Positions 44,815 through 59,179 of a stretch of DNA of 64,000 nucleotides are shown here, piece by piece. The stretch is from Candidatus Bathyarchaeia archaeon (lineage in GTDB: Archaea > Thermoproteota > Bathyarchaeia > Bathyarchaeales > Bathycorpusculaceae). A program made the position numbers and the translations under genes. Where the stretch lies: positions 2,372,519 to 2,436,518 of the forward strand of contig CP166960.1 of NCBI GenBank assembly GCA_041447175.1. Reading direction: 5' to 3'. The notes below the pieces were generated by a model, which was given only the letters and a program-made list of their open reading frames with translations, was not told where the DNA came from and made no database searches. Every line of letters starts with the position of its first letter. Position 1 is the stretch's first letter.

Positions 44815-46038
44815 GTGGTAGAAAACGTTAAAGAACTTCTCAAACTTCACGAAGGCATAAAACGTGAAGTTTACCTTGACAACGAAAACAGCACCGCGAC
44901 ACCGCAGGAAGTCCTCGACGCCATGCTTACTTACTTCAACAAACAAGCCTACGGCAACCCAACCCTCACCCACAAACCCGGCTGGGAAGCCTTCACCGCC
45001 ATCATGACCGCCTCCCAGCAAATCGCCAACACCCTCGGCGCCAAAGTTTTGGAAGAAATTAACTTCACGCCCGGCGAGACCGAAGCCAACAACCTCGCCT
45101 TGACGGGTGCTTTAGCGGCAAATCCGCAGAAGGGCAAAAAACTTGTCATCAGCGAAATAGAGCCCATAAACGTCCTCAACATAACTGACCTGCTCAAAAA
45201 GCAGGGCTACACAACCACCAAAGTCCCCGTGGACCCCGAAGGCACCCTTGACTTGGAGAAGCTTAAAGAAGTCGTCGACAAAGACACCGCCTTGGTCAGC
45301 ATCCATATGGTGAACAACGAAATCGGCACTATCCAGCCCATCAAAGAGGCTGTTGACATCGTCAAAGACCGCAACCCCGCCGCCATCTTCCACACCGACG
45401 CCTCCGACGCCTACGGCAGAATCCCCTTTAACGTGCAAGACCTCAAAGTCGACATGGCAACCATCAGCAGCTTCAAAATCCTCGGTCCCCGAGGCACTGG
45501 CGCTCTCTACATTAATGACAGCATAAACGTGGAGCGCATAATTGAAGGACCCATCGGCACCCAGAAAATGTGGCCCGGCATCGAAAACACCCCACTCATC
45601 ATGGGCTTTGCGAAAGCTTCTGAACTTGCATTCAGCACCTTTGACGCTAACGTTGCCAAGATGCGTTCTCTGCGGGATAAGCTGGTGGATGGCATTTTGG
45701 GTTCGATGACGGATGTGAAATTTAATGGCGCAAAAGGCGATAAACGCAGCCCTGACAACGCCAACATCAGCTTCCTGCGTTGCGAAGGCGAAGCGCTCAC
45801 CATTGAGCTCAGCCTCAAAGGCGTGTACGTGTCCAGCGGCAGCGCCTGCAGCAGGCGGCTTCTGCAACCCAGCCACGTTCTCGTCGCTATTGGGCGGCAC
45901 TTCAGTGAGGCTCATGGCAGCATCCTAATGAAGACCACACGGTATCATACAGAAGAAGATATTAACCATGTCTTGGATTCGATTCCTAGCTCCGTGGAGC
46001 GAATCAGAGGCATAGTGGGCTCAACAGGAGTTGACTAA
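44815..46038 (+). CDS. Divergent NifS/IscS-like class V aminotransferase
   Basis: A 407-residue cysteine desulfurase homologue heading the Fe-S operon; GTG start. The PLP lysine (K221, 'SSFKILGPRGTGALY') and the sulfur-carrying Cys (C345, 'SSGSACSRRLLQPSHVL') are kept. However, residues conserved in IscS differ: the PLP-stacking His of 'EHKAV' is Pro ('SEIEPINVL', P117), the Gln of 'HVDATQS' is Asp ('HTDASD', D198), and the His before the Lys is Phe (F220). It may be a desulfurase with altered chemistry or act only in persulfide transfer. The IscU gene overlaps its tail region by position (46040 follows the stop at 46038), and a canonical SufS lies two genes downstream. Confidence 0.85.
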   Translation: MVENVKELLKLHEGIKREVYLDNENSTATPQEVLDAMLTYFNKQAYGNPTLTHKPGWEAFTAIMTASQQIANTLGAKVLEEINFTPGETEANNLALTGALAANPQKGKKLVISEIEPINVLNITDLLKKQGYTTTKVPVDPEGTLDLEKLKEVVDKDTALVSIHMVNNEIGTIQPIKEAVDIVKDRNPAAIFHTDASDAYGRIPFNVQDLKVDMATISSFKILGPRGTGALYINDSINVERIIEGPIGTQKMWPGIENTPLIMGFAKASELAFSTFDANVAKMRSLRDKLVDGILGSMTDVKFNGAKGDKRSPDNANISFLRCEGEALTIELSLKGVYVSSGSACSRRLLQPSHVLVAIGRHFSEAHGSILMKTTRYHTEEDINHVLDSIPSSVERIRGIVGSTGVD

Positions 46039-46039
46039 C

Positions 46040-46546
46040 ATGTCACGTGTACCCCTACCTTACAACCCCAAAGTTCTGGACTTATTCCGTAACCCCAAAA
46101 ACCTCGGCAAAATGGAAGACGCCTCAGTCGTGGCGGTCGCAGGCAACCCTGCGTGCGGAGACATGGTTACCTTCTACCTCAAAATCACCCCCGACGAAGT
46201 CATCGAAAAAGCCACTTTCGAAAGCTACGGCTGCGCCGCCAACATCGCCACCAGCAGCATCGTCACCGAAATGATAAAAGGCTTAACCCTCAAATCCGCC
46301 TGGGAAGACATCACCTGGAAGAAAGTCACCGAGGAAGTCGGCGGCTTGCCCAGCATAAAATTCCACTGCGGCGTCCTTGCGGTGGGCGCGTTAAAGCGGG
46401 CAGTGAGGCTCTACTACGAAAAGAAAGGCTCAGCCCCCGACTGGCTGCCTAAGGACCACACGTTTGAGGAAAAGCAAGCCCTAGAAGAAGAGGAACTTGC
46501 AAAGATGCTCTCCAAACGGCTCAAGACTGAGGAAGAGAAAAAGTAA
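46040..46546 (+). CDS. iscU: IscU/NifU N-terminal Fe-S scaffold protein
   Basis: A 168-residue scaffold that builds Fe-S clusters. The three cluster Cys are present: C39 in 'GNPACGDMV' with D41, C65 in 'ESYGCAANIATSSIV' and C110 in 'KFHCGVLAVGALK'. A charged C-terminal tail follows ('EEKQALEEEELAKMLSKRLKTEEEKK'), longer than usual. I chose ATG 46040 (AGGAG ten bases upstream); a TTG at 46031 overlaps the previous gene's end. Placed between two desulfurase-like genes and ending two bases before sufS, it is the assembly platform of this operon. Confidence 0.94.
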   Translation: MSRVPLPYNPKVLDLFRNPKNLGKMEDASVVAVAGNPACGDMVTFYLKITPDEVIEKATFESYGCAANIATSSIVTEMIKGLTLKSAWEDITWKKVTEEVGGLPSIKFHCGVLAVGALKRAVRLYYEKKGSAPDWLPKDHTFEEKQALEEEELAKMLSKRLKTEEEKK

Positions 46547-46548
46547 AC

Positions 46549-47787
46549 ATGTTTGACCCCCACAAGGTTCGAGCCGATTTCCCAATTCTGAAGCGGAAAA
46601 TCAACAACCACCCCCTCATCTACTTCGACAACGCCGCAACAACACAGAAACCCCAGCAAGTCATCGACGCCGAACGAGACTTCTACGAAAACCACAACGC
46701 CAACGTCCACCGCGCCGTACACACGCTAAGCCAAGAAGCAACAGAACTTCACGAAGGCGCACGCGAAACAGTCTCCAAATTTCTTGGAGCCAAAGAATCC
46801 GCCGAAGTCATATTCACCCGAGGCACCACCGAAGCCATCAACCTTGTCGCCTACAGCTGGGGACTACCCAACCTCAAAGCAGGCGACGAGGTGCTGTTGT
46901 CGATGATGGAGCACCACAGCAACATCGTCCCCTGGGAACTCATAGCTAAAATTACAGGAGCCACCGTAAAATACGGCAAAGTCCACCCAGACGGCACTTT
47001 AGACATGGCGGATTTTGAGGCTAAATTTTCCAAACACACCAAACTTGCCAGCCTTAGCCAAGTCAGCAACGTAAGCGGCATCATAAACGACGTTAAACAA
47101 GTCGCCAAAGTTGCCCACGAACACGGCGCGCTCATGCTTGTCGACGGTGCCCAATCTGTGCCTCACATGCCCGTGAATGTGACCGATTTGGATGCCGATT
47201 TCTTGGCGTTTTCAGGACACAAGATGCTGGGGCCAACAGGCATCGGTGGGCTTTACGGCAAGAAGGCGTTGCTGGAGCAGATGGCTCCCTTTGAAGGAGG
47301 CGGCGAAATGATACGGGAAGTCACCATAGACCTGCAGACGGAACGTTGTGGCATAAGCTGGAATGACCCGCCATGGAAGTTTGAGGCAGGTACCCCAAAC
47401 ATATGTGGCAGCGCCGCGTTGGCGGCAGCCATCAAGTACCTGCAACGGTTGGGCATGGAAGAGGTTTTCCGTCACGAAAAAGAATTAACCGCCTACGCGA
47501 TGCAGCAGATGCTTTCCTGCTGCACCAAACTCAAACTTTACGGAACCACGGATGTTTCCCTCAAATGCGGCATCATGCCTTTTGGTGTGGAGGGCTTAAG
47601 TAGCCACGACGTCGCCCTCTTCTTGGATACTTACGGCATTATGATACGCAGCGGCTACCACTGCGCCCAGCCCCTGCACCAGATTTTCAACTTGTCCTCC
47701 AGCGCCCGAGCCAGCTTTTACATCTACAACACCAAAGAAGAAATCGACCGCTTCGTAGAAGTGTTAAAGGAGATTGAGCAGTTCTAA
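46549..47787 (+). CDS. sufS: Cysteine desulfurase, SufS type
   Basis: A 412-residue group II desulfurase with canonical residues: 'DNAATTQKPQQVI' near 27, 'MMEHHSNIVPWE' (120-130) with the PLP-stacking His, 'LVDGAQSVPHMPV' with the expected Gln, 'FSGHKMLGPTGIGGLYG' with K225, and C372 in 'RSGYHCAQPLHQ'. It takes sulfur from cysteine as persulfide and passes it to the scaffold. It starts two bases after the iscU stop, and its stop overlaps the next start by one base (TAATG). It is the functional counterpart to the divergent NifS-like protein upstream. Confidence 0.95.
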   Translation: MFDPHKVRADFPILKRKINNHPLIYFDNAATTQKPQQVIDAERDFYENHNANVHRAVHTLSQEATELHEGARETVSKFLGAKESAEVIFTRGTTEAINLVAYSWGLPNLKAGDEVLLSMMEHHSNIVPWELIAKITGATVKYGKVHPDGTLDMADFEAKFSKHTKLASLSQVSNVSGIINDVKQVAKVAHEHGALMLVDGAQSVPHMPVNVTDLDADFLAFSGHKMLGPTGIGGLYGKKALLEQMAPFEGGGEMIREVTIDLQTERCGISWNDPPWKFEAGTPNICGSAALAAAIKYLQRLGMEEVFRHEKELTAYAMQQMLSCCTKLKLYGTTDVSLKCGIMPFGVEGLSSHDVALFLDTYGIMIRSGYHCAQPLHQIFNLSSSARASFYIYNTKEEIDRFVEVLKEIEQF

Positions 47788-48065: not shown

Positions 48066-49541
48066 TTACCGCCTTTTGATTTTTATCTTGGTACGGCTAA
48101 CCCAGTTAAACACGGGTATGAGCGGGCCTTTAAGCGCCTGCGGCAGCGCATCTTTTGCCTCTTTATGCAGCCCCAGTTTAGCCGCCCAACGCCCCTTCTT
48201 GGTCAGCGGCACATAATACCGCGTCAGGTTGTATTTGGAGAAGCCGTTGTTTTCTTTGAACATGTCAAGGGAGGGGTGGTTGCCCATTCTGCCATACATG
48301 AGCCACGGCACGTTTTTTTCTGCGCAAACCTCCACCGCCTTTGCCACTAAGGCGTTGTTTAAGGCTTTGTCCCAGTGTTTTTGAAGCGAAAGAATCTGCG
48401 CCATAACCGTCAGCTGGTCGCCATGGACAAGCTGCACAAACCCCACAACCTCCCCCTCAAGCGACTCAGCTATGAAGGTGCTGTTTGTGGCTGAACGCAC
48501 CAGCGCTTTAACATGCTCTAACGGTATCCCATAATGCGAAAACGCCCTGCCTTGACGAATGGGAGTTTCATTGTAAATCTTCCATATGCCCTCTGCTAAC
48601 TGCTCTGTGGGCTCCACCACTTCGGTTTGTACGCCGCTTTTTTGGGCTTTGCGGACCATGTTGCGGGTTTTCTTGCCCACTTTAGCCAGCCACGCCTCGT
48701 AGGGAATTATCTGCAACAGGGCTATGTTGTCTTCCGCTTTCAGCCAACTGCTAGAAGGCTTGTTTAGTGGACTGCACCATTTACGCTCCACAAACGTAAA
48801 CATGTCTGCGTCGCGGTCGACGATTTTCCCAAAAAACCCGCTTGAAATGGGCGCGTCTTTGATGTATTCGTATTGTTCTTGGTACTTGGCGACTTTAAGA
48901 AAGCCCTTCTTTTGCACCGCCAACCCTTCAAGCTCCCCATCCACCTCCAGAAGCGTTTTGAGGGTTTCATAGTAAGGTCCTCGGTGATTGAAGGTTCCCC
49001 GCTCAAACAGCCACTCAGGATGCACATGCAAAACTTCCCCTTTGGCGATGCTTTCCAGTGCAGCTTTCACCGCTTGCTCAGTGGGTTTAGTGTGGCACAA
49101 CAAGTCTAAGCCCAAGGTGGGGAAATCGTAAAACGACTTCAACGGGAACCCCGCAGGGATAGGCGCTCTTGCTTCCCAGAGTTTACGCTTCCACATCAGA
49201 CGCGCAAGCAGTCGGGCAGTTCCGTGCACCGTGTAGTACTTCACTTTTCGCCCTGTGGCTTTTTCCAAGTTTTCCCATTCAACATACGGTTTAGTGGCGA
49301 CATGCAATGCAACTTCATGCCTCTCAGGGTGCAGGAGCGAGAGCAGTTCCTTGTCGGGGATTGTGTAGGGGGTGAAAAACCAGTATGCCCTGACCTCTTT
49401 TTGGGATTGGTTAACCATCTTTGCGATTATCTTGGCGTTTTTGTCGTAGTTTTTGCTGGGAGGTAGGCTGAGGGCTGTGAAGAGGAAGCTTTGCATCCGC
49501 GAAGGGTACGGGTAATCCACGTCCAGTCTGATTTTTATCAT
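48066..49541 (-). CDS. Polysaccharide-deacetylase-like / FemAB-like (GNAT) fusion
   Basis: A 491-residue two-domain protein. Residues 1-230 resemble a polysaccharide deacetylase barrel: 'KIRLDVDYPYPSRM' (Asp pair), 'HEVALHV' (metal His), 'TVHGTARLL', 'FDFPTLGL' and 'VLHVHPEWLF'. Residues 260-490 are a FemAB/GNAT-type acyl or peptidyl transferase: 'NMVRKAQKSGVQTEVVEP', 'FIAESLEGEVVGFVQLVHGDQLTVMAQILSLQKHWDKALNNALVAKAVEVC' and 'WLMYGRMGNHPSLDMFKENNGFSKY'. Together they could remove an acetyl group and add an amino acid or acyl group to a cell-surface sugar. First gene of the glycan cluster on this side. Confidence 0.78.
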   Translation of the reverse strand: MIKIRLDVDYPYPSRMQSFLFTALSLPPSKNYDKNAKIIAKMVNQSQKEVRAYWFFTPYTIPDKELLSLLHPERHEVALHVATKPYVEWENLEKATGRKVKYYTVHGTARLLARLMWKRKLWEARAPIPAGFPLKSFYDFPTLGLDLLCHTKPTEQAVKAALESIAKGEVLHVHPEWLFERGTFNHRGPYYETLKTLLEVDGELEGLAVQKKGFLKVAKYQEQYEYIKDAPISSGFFGKIVDRDADMFTFVERKWCSPLNKPSSSWLKAEDNIALLQIIPYEAWLAKVGKKTRNMVRKAQKSGVQTEVVEPTEQLAEGIWKIYNETPIRQGRAFSHYGIPLEHVKALVRSATNSTFIAESLEGEVVGFVQLVHGDQLTVMAQILSLQKHWDKALNNALVAKAVEVCAEKNVPWLMYGRMGNHPSLDMFKENNGFSKYNLTRYYVPLTKKGRWAAKLGLHKEAKDALPQALKGPLIPVFNWVSRTKIKIKRR

Positions 49542-49620
49542 GGCGCCTCAGGTGTCGTCTCTAACAAAAAGCTAAGTTAGATTATATAACGTTTGGTTTG
49601 AAACCAGCCCAGAAATTGCT

Positions 49621-51218: not shown

Positions 51219-51713
51219 ATGTACTTTGCTGAAACAATATGCGGGGCGCATTGTTTTCGAATGATAATTAATTCCAAGGTTCATCCTTCAGTTAAAATTT
51301 GGCATCCTGAACTTGTAAACATATACGACTCATACATTGGTGAAAATACGAAAGTGGCAAGTTTCGTTGAGATCGGTGGTGCTCGAATCGGCAAATGGTG
51401 CAAAATCGAAGCTTTCTCCTTTATACCCCCGGGCACGGTGATTGAGGATTACGTTTTTGTTGGTCCTCATGTAATAATAACAAATGACCGTTATCCAGAC
51501 GCGAAAAGGGACACTTGGAACTCTGAGCCTGTCACAATCAAGAGGGGAGCCAGCATCGGTGCTGGTAGTGTAATTGTGGCTGGGGTGACAATCGGCGAGA
51601 ATGCGTTAGTTGGTGCGGGGAGCGTTGTTTCTCGTGATGTTTCTGGTGAGACCATTGTTTACGGAGAAAAAGCGTATCCACGCGGCAAAATAAGATGCGA
51701 CGCTGAGTTGTGA
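51219..51713 (+). CDS. Left-handed beta-helix (hexapeptide) acyltransferase
   Basis: A protein of up to 164 residues with hexapeptide repeats: 'IYDSYIGENTKVASFVEIGGARIGKWCKIEAFSFIPPGTVIEDYVFVGPHVIITNDRYP' then 'IKRGASIGAGSVIVAGVTIGENALVGAGSVVSRDV'. The 'GPHVIITND' loop fits sugar N- or O-acetyltransferases of the WbbJ/WlbB type that use acetyl-CoA. ATG 51219 gives the longest frame; ATG 51261 ('MIINSKVHPSVKIW') is the more typical family start. It would acetylate a sugar nucleotide or glycan. Four bases upstream of the GT2 gene, so same transcript. Confidence 0.85.
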   Translation: MYFAETICGAHCFRMIINSKVHPSVKIWHPELVNIYDSYIGENTKVASFVEIGGARIGKWCKIEAFSFIPPGTVIEDYVFVGPHVIITNDRYPDAKRDTWNSEPVTIKRGASIGAGSVIVAGVTIGENALVGAGSVVSRDVSGETIVYGEKAYPRGKIRCDAEL

Positions 51714-51717
51714 GCGG

Positions 51718-52518
51718 ATGACTGAGCCCCTGGTAAGTTTAGTTGTTGCCACGTATAATTACGGCAGATATTTGCCAGAAACTATTGAAAGCATTCTGAA
51801 ACAATCCTACAAAAACCTCGAAATCATAGTTGTAGACGACGGTTCTACTGATAACACAAGACAAGTGGTGAAGCAGTATCCCGTCAGATACATCTACCAA
51901 GAAAATCATGGGCCTTCTTACGCGTTTAATGTTGGTATAAGAATTTCCCATGGAAGGTTCTACATAACTCCTGGTGCCGATGACAAATTACATCCTGATT
52001 ATGTGGCGCTTTGCGTTAAAGAAATGCTCAAAAATGACAGTGTAGGCTTCGTTTGGACGGGTGCACAGGAATTTGGTTTAACATATGAACTGAGGTCACC
52101 TAATCCGCTACATAATACCTTAAGTATTTACCGAGGGCCTGGAGGGCAACTTGGCGCTGCGCTGTTTCGTCGGAAAGCCTTTGAAGATGTGGGAGGCTAC
52201 GATGAAACTTTGACAGTTTATGAAGATTGGGATATAGCCATCAGGATGCTTAAACGGGGCTGGAAAGGTTGTCCCATAATGTTGCCTCTTTATTTTTGGC
52301 GTAGACATGGCGTGAGTCGTAATACGCGAGCTGAAAGAGACAAGCTTCTTAAAGTGTTGGAAAAAAAATATCCCCACTTGAAACTTTACAATAGACTTGC
52401 TCGATTTCAGGATTTTTTTGTGCTTTGCTTCTCAGACCCCGGCGAGTTATGTAATCGTTTGTTGCAAAAATTCCGAAAGACACAATCAAAATTGAAGCAA
52501 TACTCTCTCGGTCGATGA
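51718..52518 (+). CDS. Family 2 glycosyltransferase
   Basis: A 266-residue GT-A enzyme: 'VSLVVATYNYGRYLPETIESILKQSYKNLEIIVVDDGSTDNTRQVVKQY' is the GT2 nucleotide-sugar fold, 'FYITPGADDKLHPDY' the metal DxD-like region (reads ADD), and 'DETLTVYEDWDIAIRMLKRGW' the acceptor/ED-type catalytic motif. A short C-terminal tail follows ('LLKVLEKKYPHLKLYNRLARF'). It transfers a sugar from a nucleotide donor to a lipid-linked or protein glycan. The preceding acyltransferase gene is four bases away. Which sugar is unknown. Confidence 0.9.
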   Translation: MTEPLVSLVVATYNYGRYLPETIESILKQSYKNLEIIVVDDGSTDNTRQVVKQYPVRYIYQENHGPSYAFNVGIRISHGRFYITPGADDKLHPDYVALCVKEMLKNDSVGFVWTGAQEFGLTYELRSPNPLHNTLSIYRGPGGQLGAALFRRKAFEDVGGYDETLTVYEDWDIAIRMLKRGWKGCPIMLPLYFWRRHGVSRNTRAERDKLLKVLEKKYPHLKLYNRLARFQDFFVLCFSDPGELCNRLLQKFRKTQSKLKQYSLGR

Positions 52519-52588
52519 TCCCGTTGGGGAAAAGCTATTTTTATGTAAACCTTCAACTACTCTCACTGGACCTTTCAGGCGAATAATA

Positions 52589-53473
52589 TTGGCTAAAGTT
52601 GATTTGGTCATGTGGACCAAAAACGGGGCAAAAACCCTTTCCCCGGTTCTGAAACGAATCAACGCAGTGATTCCCCCACAAAACGTGAACAGGCGAATTA
52701 TTGTAGATGACCAAAGCACCGACGGCACCCTTGACATAGTCAAATCGTACGGTTGGCAAGTCGTCCCCAACCAAGGAACAGGCATAAGCGACGGCGCCAA
52801 CACCGCCCTCAAACACGTTCAATGCGAATATTTCGTGAGTTTTGAGCAGGACCTGCTTTTATCTGAGGATTGGTGGCGCAAAATTCCGCCGCTGCTGGAG
52901 AACCCACAGATCGGGGCGGCTTCGGGGATGCGGTTTGCAAGTCAACCCCGCGGGGTCATGCGGTTGCAGCAGTATGTTGCCCGCAAGTACCGTGGAGAAG
53001 AACAGTTGTCTTCTTGGCTTCGGGGCAGGCAGAATGCGGCTTTCACTTTAGGCAGCACCTTAGACAATACCATCTACAAAACGGAGGTCATCCGTTCAGT
53101 AGGCGGTTTTCCACTGGTGAAGGTGAACGCTGGCGTGGACACAACTTTGGCTTACCGGTTAAAGCTTGCAGGTTATTCTTGGGCAGTTAACTATCAAGTC
53201 CAGTCGGTTCATCTACGCGGCGGCTTGCGGCATGAGTTAAGCCACCAGTACTGGTATGGGACTCAGTCACGGGAGATTTGGCAAAAGGTTGAGCATGAAT
53301 CCCAGCAGCAGGCGCCGATTTCGCGGTTTGGCATTTTTTACCGCTTTGCCATTTCCCCCTTCACAGGCTTGTTTGTGGCATACAAGATGCGGGAAGCCAC
53401 CATAGCCTACATCCATCCCCTGATAAAATTCTATTACCTAAAAGGCTACTTGGAGTCTGGCAAACGCCACTAA
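52589..53473 (+). CDS. Family 2 glycosyltransferase
   Basis: A 294-residue GT2 enzyme, TTG start. 'VDLVMWTKNGAKTLSPVLKRINAVIPPQNVNRRIIVDDQSTDGTLDIV' is the donor-binding fold and 'YFVSFEQDLLLSEDW' the region where the DxD would stand (reads EQD). 'LGSTLDNTIYKTEVIRSVGGFPLVKVNAGVDTTLAYRLKLAGY' carries the acceptor side and a D-type catalytic motif. The C-terminal amphipathic stretch 'RFGIFYRFAISPFTGLFVAYKMREATIAYIHPLIKFYYLKGYL' suggests membrane association. It ends overlapping the convergent DUF354 gene by four bases. Confidence 0.85.
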   Translation: MAKVDLVMWTKNGAKTLSPVLKRINAVIPPQNVNRRIIVDDQSTDGTLDIVKSYGWQVVPNQGTGISDGANTALKHVQCEYFVSFEQDLLLSEDWWRKIPPLLENPQIGAASGMRFASQPRGVMRLQQYVARKYRGEEQLSSWLRGRQNAAFTLGSTLDNTIYKTEVIRSVGGFPLVKVNAGVDTTLAYRLKLAGYSWAVNYQVQSVHLRGGLRHELSHQYWYGTQSREIWQKVEHESQQQAPISRFGIFYRFAISPFTGLFVAYKMREATIAYIHPLIKFYYLKGYLESGKRH

Positions 53474-54510
53474 GCCGCCTTGCCCCGTTGCATGCAAAGC
53501 TCAACGTAACGCGTCCAAACCGGTAGGGGCGACTCAAGCTTAGCCAACATGGTTTTTGTGTCCATTTTGTGCTTCGGGGGGTTTTGCAGGATTTTTTTGG
53601 CTGTTCGGATAATGCGGTTGGTGTTTTGGCTGATTTGGATGGGGAACCCCTTCTTGTGAAGGTATCGTGCTTGCACATCCCAGAAATGGAAATTAATCGT
53701 TGGAATCCCTGCCAACGCGGTTTCTCGGCATGCAGTGCCCCCGCTGCCTACCATCAAATCCACATACGGAATTAGCTGCGCGGTCAACACGGGTTTGGGT
53801 GATACCCAGACGTTGGGGATTTCTCTGAGTTTTTCTCTCTCCGCTTCGTATCTTGGCAGGCAAACGACGGTGGCGTGCTTGGCGAGTTCTCGGATGAGCC
53901 GTTGGCTGTCAACTTTGACCTCTTTGCAGTAGCTGGCTTGGTACTCGGCGTCGCGGAAAAGCACCACTGGCTTTTTGCCGCTGAGTTCCTCCAGAAACTT
54001 GGGTTTCTTAAACTCTGTTTTTAGCCACGCGCACTCTTCCAGCCCGTCGTAGTGGATGATTTGGTTTTTGGCTATGCCAAACTTGCTCCATGATTTTCCA
54101 AAGCATTGGGGCGCCACCAACCAATCTACAATGGGTGACACAAGCTTAGCTACATGGTACGCAAAGACGGTGTCGTTGGCGTAAACGATGGGTATGCCCA
54201 GCCCAAAAGCCGTGCGGATTGCTGCCACATCGCCGTGAGCCCAAAGCACCTTCGGGTACCCTACCTTGTCAAAGAGTTCCAGAAGCCCGAGCATGCGGTT
54301 GGCGTCGGCGGCAAGTTTCTCTTTGGGGTTAGTGCCATACTCCCCAATTGAGTGGTAGGGCACGTTGAGGGCGTCTAGAAGGTCAGTGGTTTGGGTCTGC
54401 TTTTTGGCAGTAACAAGCGTTGAGTAACCTTTCTCGTGCAGGCTGGGTAGCAGGCTGTGGATGACGATGCTGATTTTGGGGGTTACGGTGTCTAACCAAA
54501 CGTCAGGCAT
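53470..54510 (-). CDS. DUF354 family protein (UDP-GlcNAc epimerase/GT-B-like fold)
   Basis: A 346-residue protein of the archaeal DUF354 family: 'VWLDTVTPKISIVIHSLLPSLHEKGYSTLVTAK' at the N-terminus, 'VLWAHGDVAAIRTAFGLGIPIVYANDTVFAYHVAKLVSPIVDWLVAP', 'VVLFRDAEYQASY', 'VCLPRYEAEREKL' and 'YVDLMVGSGGTACRETALAGIPTINF'. The last matches the nucleotide-sugar loop of GT-B enzymes and UDP-GlcNAc 2-epimerase. The family is typical of archaeal surface-glycan clusters, with no confirmed reaction. It converges with the GT2 gene. Confidence 0.85.
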   Translation of the reverse strand: MPDVWLDTVTPKISIVIHSLLPSLHEKGYSTLVTAKKQTQTTDLLDALNVPYHSIGEYGTNPKEKLAADANRMLGLLELFDKVGYPKVLWAHGDVAAIRTAFGLGIPIVYANDTVFAYHVAKLVSPIVDWLVAPQCFGKSWSKFGIAKNQIIHYDGLEECAWLKTEFKKPKFLEELSGKKPVVLFRDAEYQASYCKEVKVDSQRLIRELAKHATVVCLPRYEAEREKLREIPNVWVSPKPVLTAQLIPYVDLMVGSGGTACRETALAGIPTINFHFWDVQARYLHKKGFPIQISQNTNRIIRTAKKILQNPPKHKMDTKTMLAKLESPLPVWTRYVELCMQRGKAA

Positions 54511-54694
54511 AACTGCTCGTTAAGGAAGGGCACAACTTGCCGTAATAAATTTTGTCCAATAAACGCACTATGTATAGTAACAAGCCCCGCTTATTTGGTG
54601 TCTATTTGGATGCTAATATTGATTCGATGCAGAAACGATAGAGGGGTAGTGACCAAACGGTTTCTTGATTACGGCAGGCAATGAATGGTTGCTG

Positions 54695-55192
54695 TCACGG
54701 TTGTTTTACTCTTCTGAAACTGCAGCCCACCTTCTCAGCGGCGGCGGTGTCGCTGTCGGTGTTGCCCACAAACAAAACCTGCACAACAGAAACTCCCAGC
54801 TTCTCTGCAGCCATAAGCAGCTGCTCGGCGCGGCTTATACTGTCCTCCCGCGTGATTACCACATCAAAATGGAGCCCAAACGGGCCCAGAATTGCTTTGA
54901 CGGCTTTTTTGCCCTGCATCGTAACCAGCGCCCGAGGTTTGCCCGCCTGTTCCCTATACGCCGCCATACCCTCAGCGCAGGGAGTGATGTCTTTGACTAC
55001 TGCCAACTCTGCCCTGTCCCAGGCAGCAAAAACTTCCCGCCTTGTTTGTGCATCTGCTTGCGAGATCACATCCACCAGCGGACGCACCACATCCAAACGC
55101 ATTATGCGTTTAAGCTCGTCGAAGAGGGCTTCCCAGTTAATGGGCAAGCAGACCAAGGTGCCGTCTAAATCAAAAATTGCTGCGGTTGGCAT
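54695..55192 (-). CDS. HAD-superfamily hydrolase
   Basis: A 165-residue HAD phosphatase: 'AIFDLDGTLVCLPINWEALFDELKRIM' (motif I with the nucleophile and acid Asp), 'KPRALVTMQGKKAVKAILGPFGLHFDVVITREDS' (motif II with Thr) and 'VVQVLFVGNTDSDTAAAEKVGCSFRRV' (motif IV, ND-type acidic residues). The cap is a small helical insert. It probably dephosphorylates a sugar or precursor. Its start overlaps the stop of the ATP-grasp gene by one base, so the two are translationally coupled. Confidence 0.9.
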   Translation of the reverse strand: MPTAAIFDLDGTLVCLPINWEALFDELKRIMRLDVVRPLVDVISQADAQTRREVFAAWDRAELAVVKDITPCAEGMAAYREQAGKPRALVTMQGKKAVKAILGPFGLHFDVVITREDSISRAEQLLMAAEKLGVSVVQVLFVGNTDSDTAAAEKVGCSFRRVKQP

Positions 55193-56265
55193 TAGTGGTA
55201 CATGGCTCCCAAAACTTTGCCGTCTTTGACCAGCCTTGCGGGGGCATCCATATGCCTAACCCAGTACAAGTCCGCGGGGAGCACGTTGTAGCGGGGCATC
55301 TCTGGGATGGTTTCTTTGAATGCTAGCCGAGTGTACAGGTAGGGGATGTTGGCGCAGTAGTCGTTGCGGAGGGTTTTGCTGGCGTAGCTGAAAAAGAAGC
55401 TGGTGGTGAACATTCTGCCGGGGTTGATTTCGGTCACGCAGGGGGTTCCTGCTGCGTTTTCTTTTAGGTCCACGCTGGCAATGCCGCTGAACTTGGAATC
55501 AATGGACAGCACAGCCTCGGTGCCTATTCGGTTTACTGCGTCATCGTGAACGGTGCGCTGCACAGCAGGGGTTCCCGTGATGCCCGAAGGCGCCAAGTAC
55601 GCGTAAATGTACTCCAGCCGCTCCCGAGCCATCGACGTGACCAGTTCGCCGTCTTTCCAAAGGCTATGAAACGCAATGTTTCTGCCCGGCAGATGCTCCT
55701 GCGCAATGAAATCCCAATCAACCCCGCGGCTACGCCAATACTCTATCCACGCTACGGCGGTTTCTTTGTTGTCTGCTGGGGTGCTGCCTTTGCCTCCCGC
55801 CCCGTGCCGTGCGCGGATCCAAATGGGGCTACCAAACGTCTCAAACGCCTCGTCGATGTCGGAGTCACTGCGGGCTTCGAGGGTTCGGGCGACAGGCACA
55901 TCTTTTTGTTTCCAGACTTTGGCGGATTGTAACTTGTCTTGGCAGGCTTTCACGGCATCCTTGGAGGGCAGGAAGGTTGGTGCGTCGAGTTTTTCGCGGT
56001 TTTCCGACACCGCCTCCACTTCGATGTCGGGTTGGGCGTGGAGGAACTCGATGTGTTCTTTGTGTATGATGTCGTTTAAGGCGTCGATGTAGGCTGGGTC
56101 TTTGGCTCTGGGAACCAGTTGTCGGGTGTCGGTTATGGCTAAGTTTAGGAAGTACTCGTTGGAGTCGGTGCCCACCAGAACTGCGGTTTCGGGTGCTGCC
56201 CGTAGGGACATTGTGAAGTTTATGCCTGCGGGTCCGCCTGCGCCTGTACAGAGGATTCGCTTCAA
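55192..56265 (-). CDS. ATP-grasp ligase
   Basis: A 357-residue ATP-grasp enzyme: 'RILCTGAGGPAGINFTMSLR' (N-terminal Rossmann-like domain), 'FLPSKDAVKACQDKLQSAKVWKQKDVPVARTLEA' (linker), 'WIRARHGAGGKGSTPADNKETAVAWIEYW' (glycine loop with ATP contacts), 'FIAQEHLPGRNIAFHSLW', and 'GIASVDLKENAAGTPCVTEINPGRM' with the metal-binding E-x-N. It resembles the carbamoyl-phosphate synthetase large-chain family. It may join an amino acid to a glycan or lipid precursor, in keeping with the FemAB-like gene nearby. Coupled to the HAD gene. Confidence 0.88.
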   Translation of the reverse strand: MKRILCTGAGGPAGINFTMSLRAAPETAVLVGTDSNEYFLNLAITDTRQLVPRAKDPAYIDALNDIIHKEHIEFLHAQPDIEVEAVSENREKLDAPTFLPSKDAVKACQDKLQSAKVWKQKDVPVARTLEARSDSDIDEAFETFGSPIWIRARHGAGGKGSTPADNKETAVAWIEYWRSRGVDWDFIAQEHLPGRNIAFHSLWKDGELVTSMARERLEYIYAYLAPSGITGTPAVQRTVHDDAVNRIGTEAVLSIDSKFSGIASVDLKENAAGTPCVTEINPGRMFTTSFFFSYASKTLRNDYCANIPYLYTRLAFKETIPEMPRYNVLPADLYWVRHMDAPARLVKDGKVLGAMYH

Positions 56266-57030: not shown

Positions 57031-57108
57031 GGGCCGATCGTCTAGCCTGGTTAGGACGTTGGCTTTACGAGCCAAAGGTCGCCGGTCCGAATCCGGCTCG
57101 GCCCACCA
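57031..57108 (+). tRNA. tRNA-Val (TAC anticodon)
   Basis: A complete tRNA: acceptor GGGCCGA/TCGGCCC, discriminator A, encoded CCA, D arm with the TGG of its loop, anticodon stem TTGGC/GCCAA with loop TTTACGA giving TAC, and T arm GCCGG-TCCGAAT-CCGGC. No intron. The convergent glycoside-hydrolase gene stops only eight bases downstream. Confidence 0.95.
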
Positions 57109-57115
57109 CAATTGA

Positions 57116-59179
57116 TTATTTGGGTTCCGCTTGGCAAACTCTGTTTTGTTTGGGTTTAGCGAGTTTTAAGACCAGAATTGTCATCGTGACAGCAACAATC
57201 CCAAGTAGAGTTACCCAAAATGAAAGCTCAGGTATAGGCGACGGTTCAGGGTCTAAAGTTTGGTTTTGCCTAAACGTAGACAAAGCACCTTTGATTGCTT
57301 CCAAGAAGACTGTTCCAGAAGTGGTTGAGGATTCAATTTGGGTTCCTTCCAGCCACTCATTCCACGAAGTAACCATAACAAACCCCAAGCTAGAACTCGT
57401 ATTGTTCAACGCGGTTTGCAGCATCTGCTCAAAAGAAGCTGCACTTGGCGGCAAAACTGCCCACGGCACACTTGCGCCAGCATTCTGGGTGTTGTTAAAG
57501 CCTGGGTACGCATTTGGAACAAACCCTATGCCCACGGTTTCCATCGTTGAGCGCCATTGAGGATAACACGTTTCTGCATCTGCCAGAAGTTGACTCCAGT
57601 TTTCGGCTTTGTCGTCAAAGTGGTAGCTGGTGGTGGCGTTCAAAAAGTAAAACATTGGCGAATCCGCGTCGGGCGGTGCGGGACCTCCGTTCAGGTCGCC
57701 AATCAGGTACAGGTCAAACCCTTGAGATTTTGCTTGTTGCCGCGCACAATCCAAGAGCGCCTGCGTTTCGTTTTCGCCGAGGTTTTCGTAGAGGTAGGGC
57801 AAATTGTAGAGAAAAAGCACGGGTGCGCCGTCAACTTTTAGGTAGCTGGGGTTACAAAAGTAGTTTTGGGTAGCGTAGGCAAAGTCGTCCAAGAAAATTG
57901 TGGAAACGTTTTTTGCGTCAGCCAAGGCGTTATCCAATACAAGGACGGTTTCATAGAGCAGGCAGAACTTAAACCCGCTCATACAGGGCGCTTTCAACAA
58001 GCCATTTCTGAGGTTCTGGTCGATGAGGGCAAAGTCGCCGTCGTGCCATGTGCCCTGCCCAATCCACGACGCCGCAAAAAAGCCTACGCCGTGCCGCTGT
58101 GCTAACTGAATTTGCTGGTTGGCAATGTTGGGGTCGTTTGAGTTGTAGTAACCTGAGTATGGTGTGCCCTTGACGTTTTCCGTCCAGTGGTTGTTGGAGG
58201 GGATGCCCCACCATGGGTAATAGTAGGCACCCACCATGCTGGAGGCGTCAGCAAACTGCACTTGGGCGGATAAGGCATAAAACACGGGTTTTCGAGTTCC
58301 ATCAAGAGCGATCAATCCAAAACTGTTTTCTTTCAGAGAGTTTTGGATAGTTTCATCATACATTTCGTACCAGAAAATTTTGTCGGCATCCGAATGTAGG
58401 GGGACGAAGTTGTCTTGGAGCCATTTTGCTTGGTTTGCCTCCGTGTATTCTGAGGCTCCACTGGAGGGCCTGCCGTATTCGGTGACCCAGAGGGGCTTGC
58501 CGGTGAGTTGTTTAGCGGCGGCTAGGGTTGCCAAATTGGATTCAACATCGCCATAGAGGTGGACGCCTTGAATGTCAACATAGTTTGCTGTGTCGCCGCA
58601 AGCGTATAATGCGTTTATGCCCCAGTTGCCGTTTGGAGTTAAGCCTGCTGCAACCACCGACGCGTTTGAGTGGCTTTTGATTACGGCATACGCGCTTGCC
58701 AGCAGGTCATGGTACGCCTGGGGGGTGAAGTATGCTTGTGGGTATTGGGGGCTGTTGGGTTCGTTCCAGATTTCCCAGGCATCAACATACTTGGCGCAGG
58801 GAGTTTGCATGATGGAGGTTACGTTGGTTTCCCAAGTGGACATATTGACGGGCTGGTTCTCTAGGGTGTTGCTGTCAATTATGGCTAACACGCTTATGTT
58901 GTTAGCGTGCATTGTTTGCATGAAGTCTACCATTTTCTGTTCAGCTACCCAGTCGATTCGGACCCACTTCACTCCGAGGTCAACAAGGTCTGCAACCACA
59001 GTTGTGGCGTTGTTGAAGCTGGTGATGTGCATGCATACCTCAGCCTCAAAAGAAGCAGAGGCGCAGTCAAGTGCTGCGTTAGTGGTTTGTGCATGTCCCC
59101 AATTTCCAATAGTCAAGAAAGAAAAGAGAAGCAAGAGCAAGCAAGCCACTGAAAGCGTTGGCACCGTTTTCTTGGACAT
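57116..59179 (-). CDS. Membrane-anchored two-domain glycoside hydrolase (GH39/GH5-like + GH99-like)
   Basis: A 687-residue exported protein. After a signal peptide (1-30), residues 35-310 form a clan A barrel: 'WEIWNEPNSPQ' (acid/base E140) and 'LWVTEYGRPSSG' (nucleophile E234). From 315, 'MVGAYYYPWWGIPSNNHW' and 'SQGFDLYLIGDLNGG' to 'VMVTSWNEWLEGTQIESS' match GH99-type endo-mannosidases. The C-terminus 'PIPELSFWVTLLGIVAVTMTILVLKLA' is a PEF/PEL-type anchor. Two catalytic modules on one surface protein suggest stepwise breakdown of a mannose- or glucan-containing polymer. Start ATG 59179. Confidence 0.85.
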   Translation of the reverse strand: MSKKTVPTLSVACLLLLLFSFLTIGNWGHAQTTNAALDCASASFEAEVCMHITSFNNATTVVADLVDLGVKWVRIDWVAEQKMVDFMQTMHANNISVLAIIDSNTLENQPVNMSTWETNVTSIMQTPCAKYVDAWEIWNEPNSPQYPQAYFTPQAYHDLLASAYAVIKSHSNASVVAAGLTPNGNWGINALYACGDTANYVDIQGVHLYGDVESNLATLAAAKQLTGKPLWVTEYGRPSSGASEYTEANQAKWLQDNFVPLHSDADKIFWYEMYDETIQNSLKENSFGLIALDGTRKPVFYALSAQVQFADASSMVGAYYYPWWGIPSNNHWTENVKGTPYSGYYNSNDPNIANQQIQLAQRHGVGFFAASWIGQGTWHDGDFALIDQNLRNGLLKAPCMSGFKFCLLYETVLVLDNALADAKNVSTIFLDDFAYATQNYFCNPSYLKVDGAPVLFLYNLPYLYENLGENETQALLDCARQQAKSQGFDLYLIGDLNGGPAPPDADSPMFYFLNATTSYHFDDKAENWSQLLADAETCYPQWRSTMETVGIGFVPNAYPGFNNTQNAGASVPWAVLPPSAASFEQMLQTALNNTSSSLGFVMVTSWNEWLEGTQIESSTTSGTVFLEAIKGALSTFRQNQTLDPEPSPIPELSFWVTLLGIVAVTMTILVLKLAKPKQNRVCQAEPK

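What the first reader, a model, noticed from the sequence alone, without database searches (positions are those of the whole stretch)
48066..49541. Polysaccharide-deacetylase/FemAB-type fusion protein
Within a single chain the N-terminal metal-type His/Asp pattern of a deacetylase precedes a GNAT/FemAB transferase, so the same protein could expose an amino group and then acylate it.
Basis: inference. Interest (0 to 1): 0.55.

Follow-up and report, generated by a model that had tools for sequence, protein, structure and literature searches.

The report
Archaeal deacetylase fused to FemX-like transferase
A gene shared by many archaea of the Bathyarchaeia joins, in one protein, a sugar-deacetylase-like part and a part shaped like enzymes that take amino acids from transfer RNA, so it may strip an acetyl group from a surface sugar and put an amino acid there instead.

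Summary
The gene at 48066-49541 (minus, 491 aa) is intact and conserved in one Bathyarchaeia family: 50 of 162 genomes of the order carry its C-domain in a full-length frame. The two-domain reading holds. Residues 1-206 match no Pfam or NCBIfam model, but fold like NodB/CE4 deacetylases (first 27 VIA rows, Z 8.9-10.8). Residues of about 201-462 have the double-GNAT FemABX fold; best matches are FemX and the tRNA-dependent Sbb17/Sba18. The C-domain keeps a Phe-Lys pair like DhpH-C in 32 of 32 and shows the CoA-loop motif at its expected place in 0 of 32. The canonical metal triad is not conserved: DxD, H80 and H174 are invariant, but the second motif-2 His is absent in 37 of 39. Two other Bathyarchaeia encode the halves as adjacent genes; bacterial exopolysaccharide loci place nodB beside femA (PMC3684757). 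20 of 24 loci hold glycosyltransferases. Best reading: it deacetylates an amino sugar and aminoacylates the freed amine, probably from aminoacyl-tRNA. Chemistry, donor and acceptor are inferred.

The parts
48066..49541 (-). whole fusion gene, 491 aa plus stop
   Evidence: orthologs
48924..49541 (-). N-domain, residues 1-206: NodB/ArnD-like irregular alpha/beta barrel
   Evidence: model pLDDT 86.5, pTM 0.84; VIA Z up to 10.8 to CE4 deacetylases
49515..49523 (-). D7-V8-D9, motif 1 (proposed base D7 and metal ligand D9)
   Evidence: invariant in 39 of 39 and also in stand-alone homologs and E. coli ArnD; the roles are inferred
49302..49304 (-). H80, first His of motif 2 (proposed metal ligand)
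   Evidence: invariant in 39 of 39; aligned with GLH of ArnD
49224..49226 (-). H106 at motif 3 (HGT), candidate replacement metal ligand
   Evidence: invariant in 39 of 39; kept in stand-alone homologs L100 and L117, not in L101
49020..49022 (-). H174 (HP), motif 5, proposed general acid
   Evidence: invariant; lies after strand 170-173 in the model
48156..48923 (-). C-domain, residues 207-462: FemABX-type double GNAT
   Evidence: VIA Z 18.3 to 6snr FemX, 18.2 to 9wqw, 18.0 to 9wqy, 16.8 to 7z6a
48648..48677 (-). basic helix GKKTRNMVRK (289-298), possible tRNA- or phosphate-binding surface
   Evidence: nine of ten positions invariant or nearly so in 32 sequences; role inferred
48255..48260 (-). 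F428-K429, proposed counterpart of DhpH-C F328-K329 and FemX K305 (its F304 is recalled)
   Evidence: 32 of 32; the LxxF[KR] pattern in 13 of 13 of A5 incl. C-only copies, with Arg for Lys in L103; equivalence inferred from motif, not measured
48069..48155 (-). basic C-terminal helix 463-491, low confidence, possible membrane contact
   Evidence: pLDDT 40-54 in the last blocks; role is a guess
51219..53473 (+). glycan genes: hexapeptide transferase (51219-51713), two GT2 glycosyltransferases (51718-52518, 52589-53473)
   Evidence: Pfam
53470..56265 (-). DUF354 (53470-54510), HAD phosphatase-like (54695-55192), ATP-grasp/PylC-like (55192-56265)
   Evidence: Pfam
44815..47787 (+). Fe-S assembly genes (named from sequence by eye, no family search run: two cysteine-desulfurase-like, one IscU-like), convergent with the target; conserved position, probably no functional link
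   Evidence: homologs in 18 of 24 loci, convergent on the 3' side in those 18

Best explanation
One cytoplasmic protein carries out two consecutive steps on an amino sugar used for a surface glycan (free nucleotide sugar, lipid-linked sugar or glycan). Step 1: the NodB/ArnD-like N-domain removes an N-acetyl or N-formyl group with D7 as base, a metal held by D9 and H80 (third ligand possibly H106 or water) and H174 as acid. Step 2: the FemABX-like C-domain transfers an aminoacyl group, most likely from an aminoacyl-tRNA, to the freed amine, with K429 in the place of FemX Lys305. Shown: intact conserved fusion, two predicted folds, conserved residues, separate-gene relatives that lie side by side in two genomes, glycan surroundings. 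Inferred: location, substrates, metal, donor, order of steps and coupling.
For: C-domain: Foldseek E 1.3e-10 to 9wqy (Sba18 with streptothrisamine); VIA Z 18.3 6snr FemX, 18.2 9wqw, 18.0 9wqy, 16.8 7z6a, 15.9 7f47 MprF, covering about 201-462. The CoA-loop motif [QR]xxGx[GA] (recalled) is found in 0 of 32 in the aligned segment (1 of 32 has it elsewhere in the C part), while the GNAT beside a stand-alone N homolog has one. F428-K429 in 32 of 32; [quoted passage not shown] N-domain: the first 27 VIA rows are NodB/CE4-type proteins, Z 8.9-10.8, including CtAxeA 2c71 9.6 and ArnD 8t0j 9.1; R5, D7, V8, D9, P62, H80, W117 and H174 are invariant in a 10-row alignment that includes E. coli ArnD. Coupling: in G213 a C-domain gene is followed after 11 nt by a stand-alone N homolog, in G234 after about 120 nt by a gene with below-cut-off PF01522 and ArnD matches. 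In bacteria nodB and femA have consecutive locus tags in exopolysaccharide loci of three genomes (PMC3684757 table passages). Precedent: a Fem-like enzyme adds glycine from Gly-tRNA to the C2-amine of a sugar (PMC10156733 passages). Context: a glycosyltransferase gene in 20 of 24 loci against 13.6% of random 13.5 kb stretches of the own genome (the two counts use different detection methods, and some loci are shorter than 13.5 kb).
Against: The second motif-2 metal His is missing in 37 of 39, and motif 3 RxPY is replaced by HGT. Foldseek gave no N-domain match at E<=0.001 (best 2.1e-3), and profile comparison with ArnD was weak (probability 4%). The C-domain scores below the cut-offs of PF02388 and TIGR03019, while the general GNAT model PF00583 is over its cut-off. 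Halves can part: in G122 the C-domain stays at the locus and no N-domain is found, in G005 one copy keeps N with a decayed C and another, apparently foreign copy keeps C with a decayed N, in G035 the frame is split. Of 6 C-only loci fetched, a NodB-like neighbour was recognised in 2; in the other 4 (L102-L105) none was, but only three neighbours in L102 were family-scanned and those of L103, L104 and L105 were only compared with window proteins. The glycan context of related loci is not independent evidence 24 times over.
Confidence: 0.45

Rival explanations
1. Deacetylation followed by acylation from acyl-CoA: an acyl swap on an amino sugar, like the separate rhizobial NodB and NodA pair (recalled).
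For: PF00583 (GNAT) is over its cut-off in the window protein; in G037 a stand-alone N homolog lies beside a tandem GNAT that has the CoA-loop motif and a weak, below-cut-off NodA match.
Against: CoA-loop motif at its expected place in 0 of 32; the full double-GNAT FemABX fold and Phe-Lys pair instead.
Confidence: 0.2
2. The N-domain is no longer a metal hydrolase; it is a substrate-binding NodB-like domain (or a metal-independent hydrolase like PuuE) that presents a sugar to the FemABX domain.
For: Second motif-2 His lost in 37 of 39; CE4 pseudoenzyme BA3943 (6hpa, 7bkf) and PuuE (3cl6) are among the best fold matches; a figure legend in PMC10967932 describes 3CL6 as metal-independent with the same His replaced; BoPDA, which lacks that His, showed no activity in the assays tried (PMC11713874 section 14).
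Against: D7, D9, H80, H106 and H174 are invariant in 39 of 39, and DxD, H80 and H174 also in three stand-alone homologs and ArnD; by the same legend PuuE lacks both Asp of motif 1, which this domain keeps.
Confidence: 0.25
3. Acceptor is not a sugar: the protein modifies a lipid or a protein amine (MprF acts on a lipid), and the N-domain acts on another bond.
For: MprF domains match the C-domain (Z 13.7-15.9); the basic C-terminal helix could touch membranes.
Against: Genes of the glycan set in 23 of 24 loci; the acceptor in the top Foldseek matches 9wqy and 9wqx is streptothrisamine, an amino-sugar compound.
Confidence: 0.1

Closest known systems
Sbb17 / Sba18 (PDB 9wqw, 9wqx, 9wqy) and Orf11, Fem-like enzymes of streptothricin-type antibiotics
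   Same: Double-GNAT FemABX fold over the C-domain (Z 17.5-18.2); Orf11 adds glycine from tRNA to a sugar C2-amine (PMC10156733 passages; PMC12945691 section 7).
   Different: 14-15% identity; no NodB domain in the matched chains of about 285 residues; antibiotic pathway, not surface glycan.
FemX / FemABX peptidoglycan aminoacyltransferases
   Same: Fold (FemX entries Z 16.4-18.3) and the Lys position by motif.
   Different: Acceptor is a peptide stem of peptidoglycan, which archaea lack (general knowledge); below Pfam FemAB cut-off.
ArnD and other NodB/CE4 deacetylases
   Same: Fold (8t0j Z 9.1; 1z7a Z 10.8), DxD motif 1, GLH-like motif 2 start, and final His.
   Different: No second motif-2 His, motif 3 is HGT, no PF01522 match in the window protein.
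[quoted passage not shown]
   Same: One chain that deacetylates a sugar amine and then substitutes it; listed by fold for the N-domain (8cd0 Z 7.3, below the rows that are clearly NodB; PMC10864358 passages).
   Different: Sulfotransferase instead of FemABX, canonical His-His-Asp triad, human Golgi enzyme. Works alike, not a relative as a whole.
Adjacent nodB and femA genes of PEP-CTERM exopolysaccharide loci (TIGR03019 FemAB)
   Same: Same pairing of families in glycan loci (PMC3684757 passages); weak TIGR03019 match in 32 of 32.
   Different: Separate genes, bacterial; here the window protein scores about a tenth of the cut-off.

Membership tests
NodB / carbohydrate esterase 4 | NodB barrel fold | tested here: met
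   VIA Z 8.9-10.8 for the first 27 rows; Foldseek best E only 2.1e-3
NodB / carbohydrate esterase 4 | motif 1 with base Asp and metal Asp | tested here: met
   D7, D9 in 39 of 39, in DxD form as in ArnD
NodB / carbohydrate esterase 4 | motif 2 H(S/T)xxH, two metal His | tested here: not met
   H80 in 39 of 39; position 84 His in 2 of 39
NodB / carbohydrate esterase 4 | motif 3 RxPY | tested here: not met
   H106-G107-T108 invariant at that place
NodB / carbohydrate esterase 4 | motif 4 DxxD(W/Y) | tested here: inconclusive
   D146 is invariant but the motif could not be placed
NodB / carbohydrate esterase 4 | motif 5 catalytic His | tested here: met
   H174 after a strand, 39 of 39; spatial position not measured
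NodB / carbohydrate esterase 4 | Pfam PF01522 over cut-off | tested here: not met
NodB / carbohydrate esterase 4 | metal binding and deacetylase activity | not testable with these tools
   needs protein
FemABX aminoacyltransferases | two GNAT subdomains with the FemABX arrangement | tested here: met
   residues of about 201-462, Z 18.3 to 6snr
FemABX aminoacyltransferases | conserved Phe-Lys near the reactive amine | tested here: inconclusive
   F428-K429 in 32 of 32; structural equivalence not measured
FemABX aminoacyltransferases | Pfam PF02388 over cut-off | tested here: not met
   11.4 of 24 bits
FemABX aminoacyltransferases | use of aminoacyl-tRNA | not testable with these tools
   needs assay
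CoA-dependent GNAT acetyltransferase | Pfam GNAT model over cut-off | tested here: met
   PF00583 24.4 bits against 20.7; this shows the superfamily, not CoA use
CoA-dependent GNAT acetyltransferase | pyrophosphate loop [QR]xxGx[GA] (recalled motif) | tested here: not met
   0 of 32 in the aligned segment
TIGR03019 XrtA FemAB equivalog | curated score 260 bits | tested here: not met
   26.7 bits
TIGR03019 XrtA FemAB equivalog | exosortase in the locus | tested here: not met
   two PF09721 genes in the genome, at 0.96 and 1.97 Mb, the target at 2.42 Mb

The most novel reading that the evidence does not exclude
A single-chain enzyme, comparable in logic to NDST, that swaps the N-acetyl (or formyl) group of an archaeal surface-glycan amino sugar for an amino acid taken from aminoacyl-tRNA, which would be a tRNA-dependent glycan modification in archaea and predicts an N-aminoacyl sugar in their envelopes.
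Probability: 0.33. Interest if true: 0.8.

Novelty: new variant of a known kind. Interest (0 to 1): 0.55.

Why it matters
If right, it links translation substrates to archaeal surface chemistry and predicts a specific, testable sugar (N-aminoacyl amino sugar) in a widespread archaeal group. It also gives a sequence-level handle on the nodB-femA pairing of bacterial exopolysaccharide loci, because the two halves are joined here and side by side elsewhere. Even the weaker reading (fold-confirmed fusion in a glycan locus) names a family of about 490 aa whose first 200 residues match no Pfam or NCBIfam model.

Tried and rejected
Sequence searches for the N-domain gave nothing useful: Pfam on 27 members (scattered weak hits, none NodB), PDB by profile (one chance hit, E 0.25), hhalign against four proteins with NodB domains (only the ArnD alignment made sense, probability 4%). 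PDB by sequence for the C-domain gave simple GNATs and chance hits, no FemX. Plasmids: no match. The VIA list of the full model hardly touches the N-domain because the C-domain fills it, so the N-domain was folded alone. A bacterial-type promoter/terminator scan said nothing clear, and Rfam found only two tRNAs.

Rejected: an artefact of joining two genes in assembly. The fusion recurs in 22 of 24 genome-contig loci as one frame (L021 is cut by a contig end, L022 is split). In the order, 50 of 162 genomes have the C-domain in an open frame of 492 codons or more (counted by hand); for 48 of these 50 the N-domain is also shown, for G539 and G540 it is inferred from frame length. Considered and kept open: complementary loss in G005 as a sign that the halves work in trans; the C-bearing copy lies on an 18.8 kb contig and resembles other genera, so it may be foreign or contaminating. 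G226's two halves lie at contig ends, so a broken assembly rather than fission. A functional link to the Fe-S genes next door was set aside: they are convergent and their position is simply conserved. tRNA-Val at 57031-57108 was not taken as a donor clue.

Not found in print: FemAB, polysaccharide deacetylase, PEP-CTERM: 1 paper; FemAB, archaea, glycan: 5 papers, listing only; 8 of 69 listed; 8 of 269 listed; none of the listed titles and abstract beginnings describes this fusion. This is a small part of the literature; subscription journals are mostly not held. What was seen of papers: PMC12945691 passages and section 7; PMC3684757, PMC5855634, PMC10967932, PMC10864358 and PMC10156733 passages; PMC11713874 abstract, section 12 part 1 of 2 and section 14.

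Full report
What is there. The ORF at 48066-49541 on the minus strand encodes 491 aa and occurs once in its 2.73 Mb, one-contig genome. The record titles name Bathyarchaeota, Bathycorpusculum and a few broader labels. 31 orthologs share 51-76% identity with it. Of 24 loci from genome contigs, 22 read as one frame, L021 is cut by the contig end and L022 is split into two overlapping frames at about residue 203. Among 60 relatives, 21 genomes have a match of any length. In the order, 65 of 162 genomes have a C-domain match at E<=1e-5 and 50 have it in an open frame of 492-556 codons (counted by hand; N-domain also shown in 48 of these 50). The N-domain was found in 51 of 250 genomes of the class, 50 of them in the window's own family and one a weak match in another, and in 25 of 349 of the phylum, all in that family. 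Both halves are constrained: dN/dS 0.056-0.090 for N and 0.099-0.132 for C in the six comparisons not saturated; four of ten were saturated.

N-domain. No Pfam or NCBIfam model describes residues 1-206. A model from 39 sequences has pLDDT 86.5 and pTM 0.84. Foldseek's best hit is a CE4 pseudoenzyme at E 2.1e-3, with none at 0.001 or below. VIA-align gives Z 8.9-10.8 for its first 27 rows, all NodB/CE4-type proteins: 1z7a 10.8 (168 aligned, 3.2 A), PuuE 3cl6 10.6, CtAxeA 2c71 9.6, ArnD 8t0j 9.1. A viral turret protein (8.9) and glucanotransferase/amylopullulanase rows (8.2-8.4) come among the next rows, and a designed TIM barrel and other barrels at 7.8 or less. An alignment with three stand-alone relatives and E. 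coli ArnD leaves R5, D7, V8, D9, P62, H80, W117 and H174 invariant in 10 of 10. In the CE4 literature motif 1 gives base and metal Asp, motif 2 H(S/T)xxH two metal His, and motif 5 the acid His (PMC5855634, passages). Here the second motif-2 His is absent in 37 of 39. BoPDA has the same gap, binds metal through an Asp-His pair and showed no activity in the assays used; CtAxeA is said to have the gap and to be active (PMC11713874, section 12 part 1 and section 14). H106 (HGT, motif 3 position) is invariant in the fused family and kept in L100 and L117 but not L101, so it is a candidate third ligand; this is inference, because the tools return no coordinates.

C-domain. In the full model (pLDDT 84.3, pTM 0.73) residues from about 190-202 to 445-462 align with FemABX proteins over both GNAT halves: 6snr FemX Z 18.3 (241 aligned), 9wqw 18.2, 9wqy 18.0, 7z6a 16.8, 7f47 MprF 15.9. 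Sequence models are weaker: PF00583 over its cut-off, PF02388 and TIGR03019 below theirs, TIGR03019 matched at E<=1 in 32 of 32 orthologs. The CoA-loop motif (recalled) is found in 0 of 32 in the aligned segment and once elsewhere. F428-K429 is invariant, matching in pattern F328-K329 of DhpH-C, where Lys is essential, and Lys305 of FemX (PMC12945691, section 7). The review describes this class as aminoacyl-tRNA-dependent. Orf11, a Fem-like enzyme like the top matches, puts glycine from Gly-tRNA on the C2-amine of the sugar of streptothrisamine (PMC10156733, passages).

The two halves belong together. Beyond the fusion, the C-domain exists alone in other Bathyarchaeia. In G213 it is followed, 11 nt on, by a stand-alone N homolog (27% identity over residues 4-117; this homolog finds the fused N-domain in 11 genomes at E 1.2e-5 to 8.1e-4). 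In G234 it is followed by a gene with matches, both below cut-off, to PF01522 (E 0.0019) and to the ArnD model (E 7.5e-5). Of 6 C-only loci fetched, these 2 (both family f9, so perhaps one event) have such a neighbour; in the other 4 none was recognised, with incomplete scanning. In G037 a third stand-alone N homolog lies near a contig end beside a tandem GNAT with a CoA-loop motif. The table of PMC3684757 lists nodB and femA with consecutive tags in Rubrivivax gelatinosus and in two further genomes, prefixes Tmz1t and Rfer (passages). Against obligate coupling: G122 keeps C only, G005 has copies that each keep one half, G035 is split.

Surroundings. Downstream in the window lie a hexapeptide transferase, two GT2 enzymes, DUF354, HAD and ATP-grasp genes. 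Among 24 loci, 23 hold a gene of the glycan set and 20 a glycosyltransferase; random 13.5 kb stretches of the own genome hold a PF00534 or PF00535 hit in 13.6%. The loci are related, their lengths differ and the detection methods differ, so this is support, not a test. The Fe-S genes on the other side are convergent in the 18 loci that show them.

Mechanism. The best reading is deacetylation (or deformylation, as in ArnD) of an amino sugar followed by aminoacylation of the freed amine. NDST1 shows that a one-chain enzyme of such logic exists (PMC10864358, passages). Donor, acceptor, metal and order are inferred. The main weakness is the incomplete metal site; the main alternative is a NodB-like domain that only binds the sugar.

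Verdict. Its chemistry is plausible and probably more specific than stated (tRNA rather than CoA); its metal claim holds only in part. New variant of a known kind; interest 0.55.

Noticed in passing
L117:3849-5730 (G037 C72): Stand-alone N-domain homolog beside a tandem GNAT with a CoA-loop motif and a weak, below-cut-off NodA match (E 9e-4): a possible separate NodB/NodA-like pair in an archaeon.
   Followed up: partly
G005: C11 204762-205574 (L042/L098) and C8 14408-15707 (L046/L099): Two copies with complementary decay: one keeps an intact 206-aa N-domain frame, the other a C-domain frame; the second resembles other genera.
   Followed up: partly
L102:4371-6105 (G135): C-domain-like paralog overlapping a methyltransferase gene in a region with glycosyltransferase-like genes; the own genome also has another FemAB-like gene (L095).
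   Followed up: no
window 57116-59179, minus: Protein matching WbsX / GH99 and a glycosyl hydrolase core, with a signal-like start by eye, beside a tRNA-Val gene (57031-57108).
   Followed up: no
window 49582-49589: TTATATAA about 41-48 nt upstream of the ATG, a plausible archaeal TATA box with a short leader (by eye).
   Followed up: no
G000:C1:964852-965667 and 1965163-1965948: Two exosortase/archaeosortase-like genes (PF09721) in the genome, far from the target.
   Followed up: no
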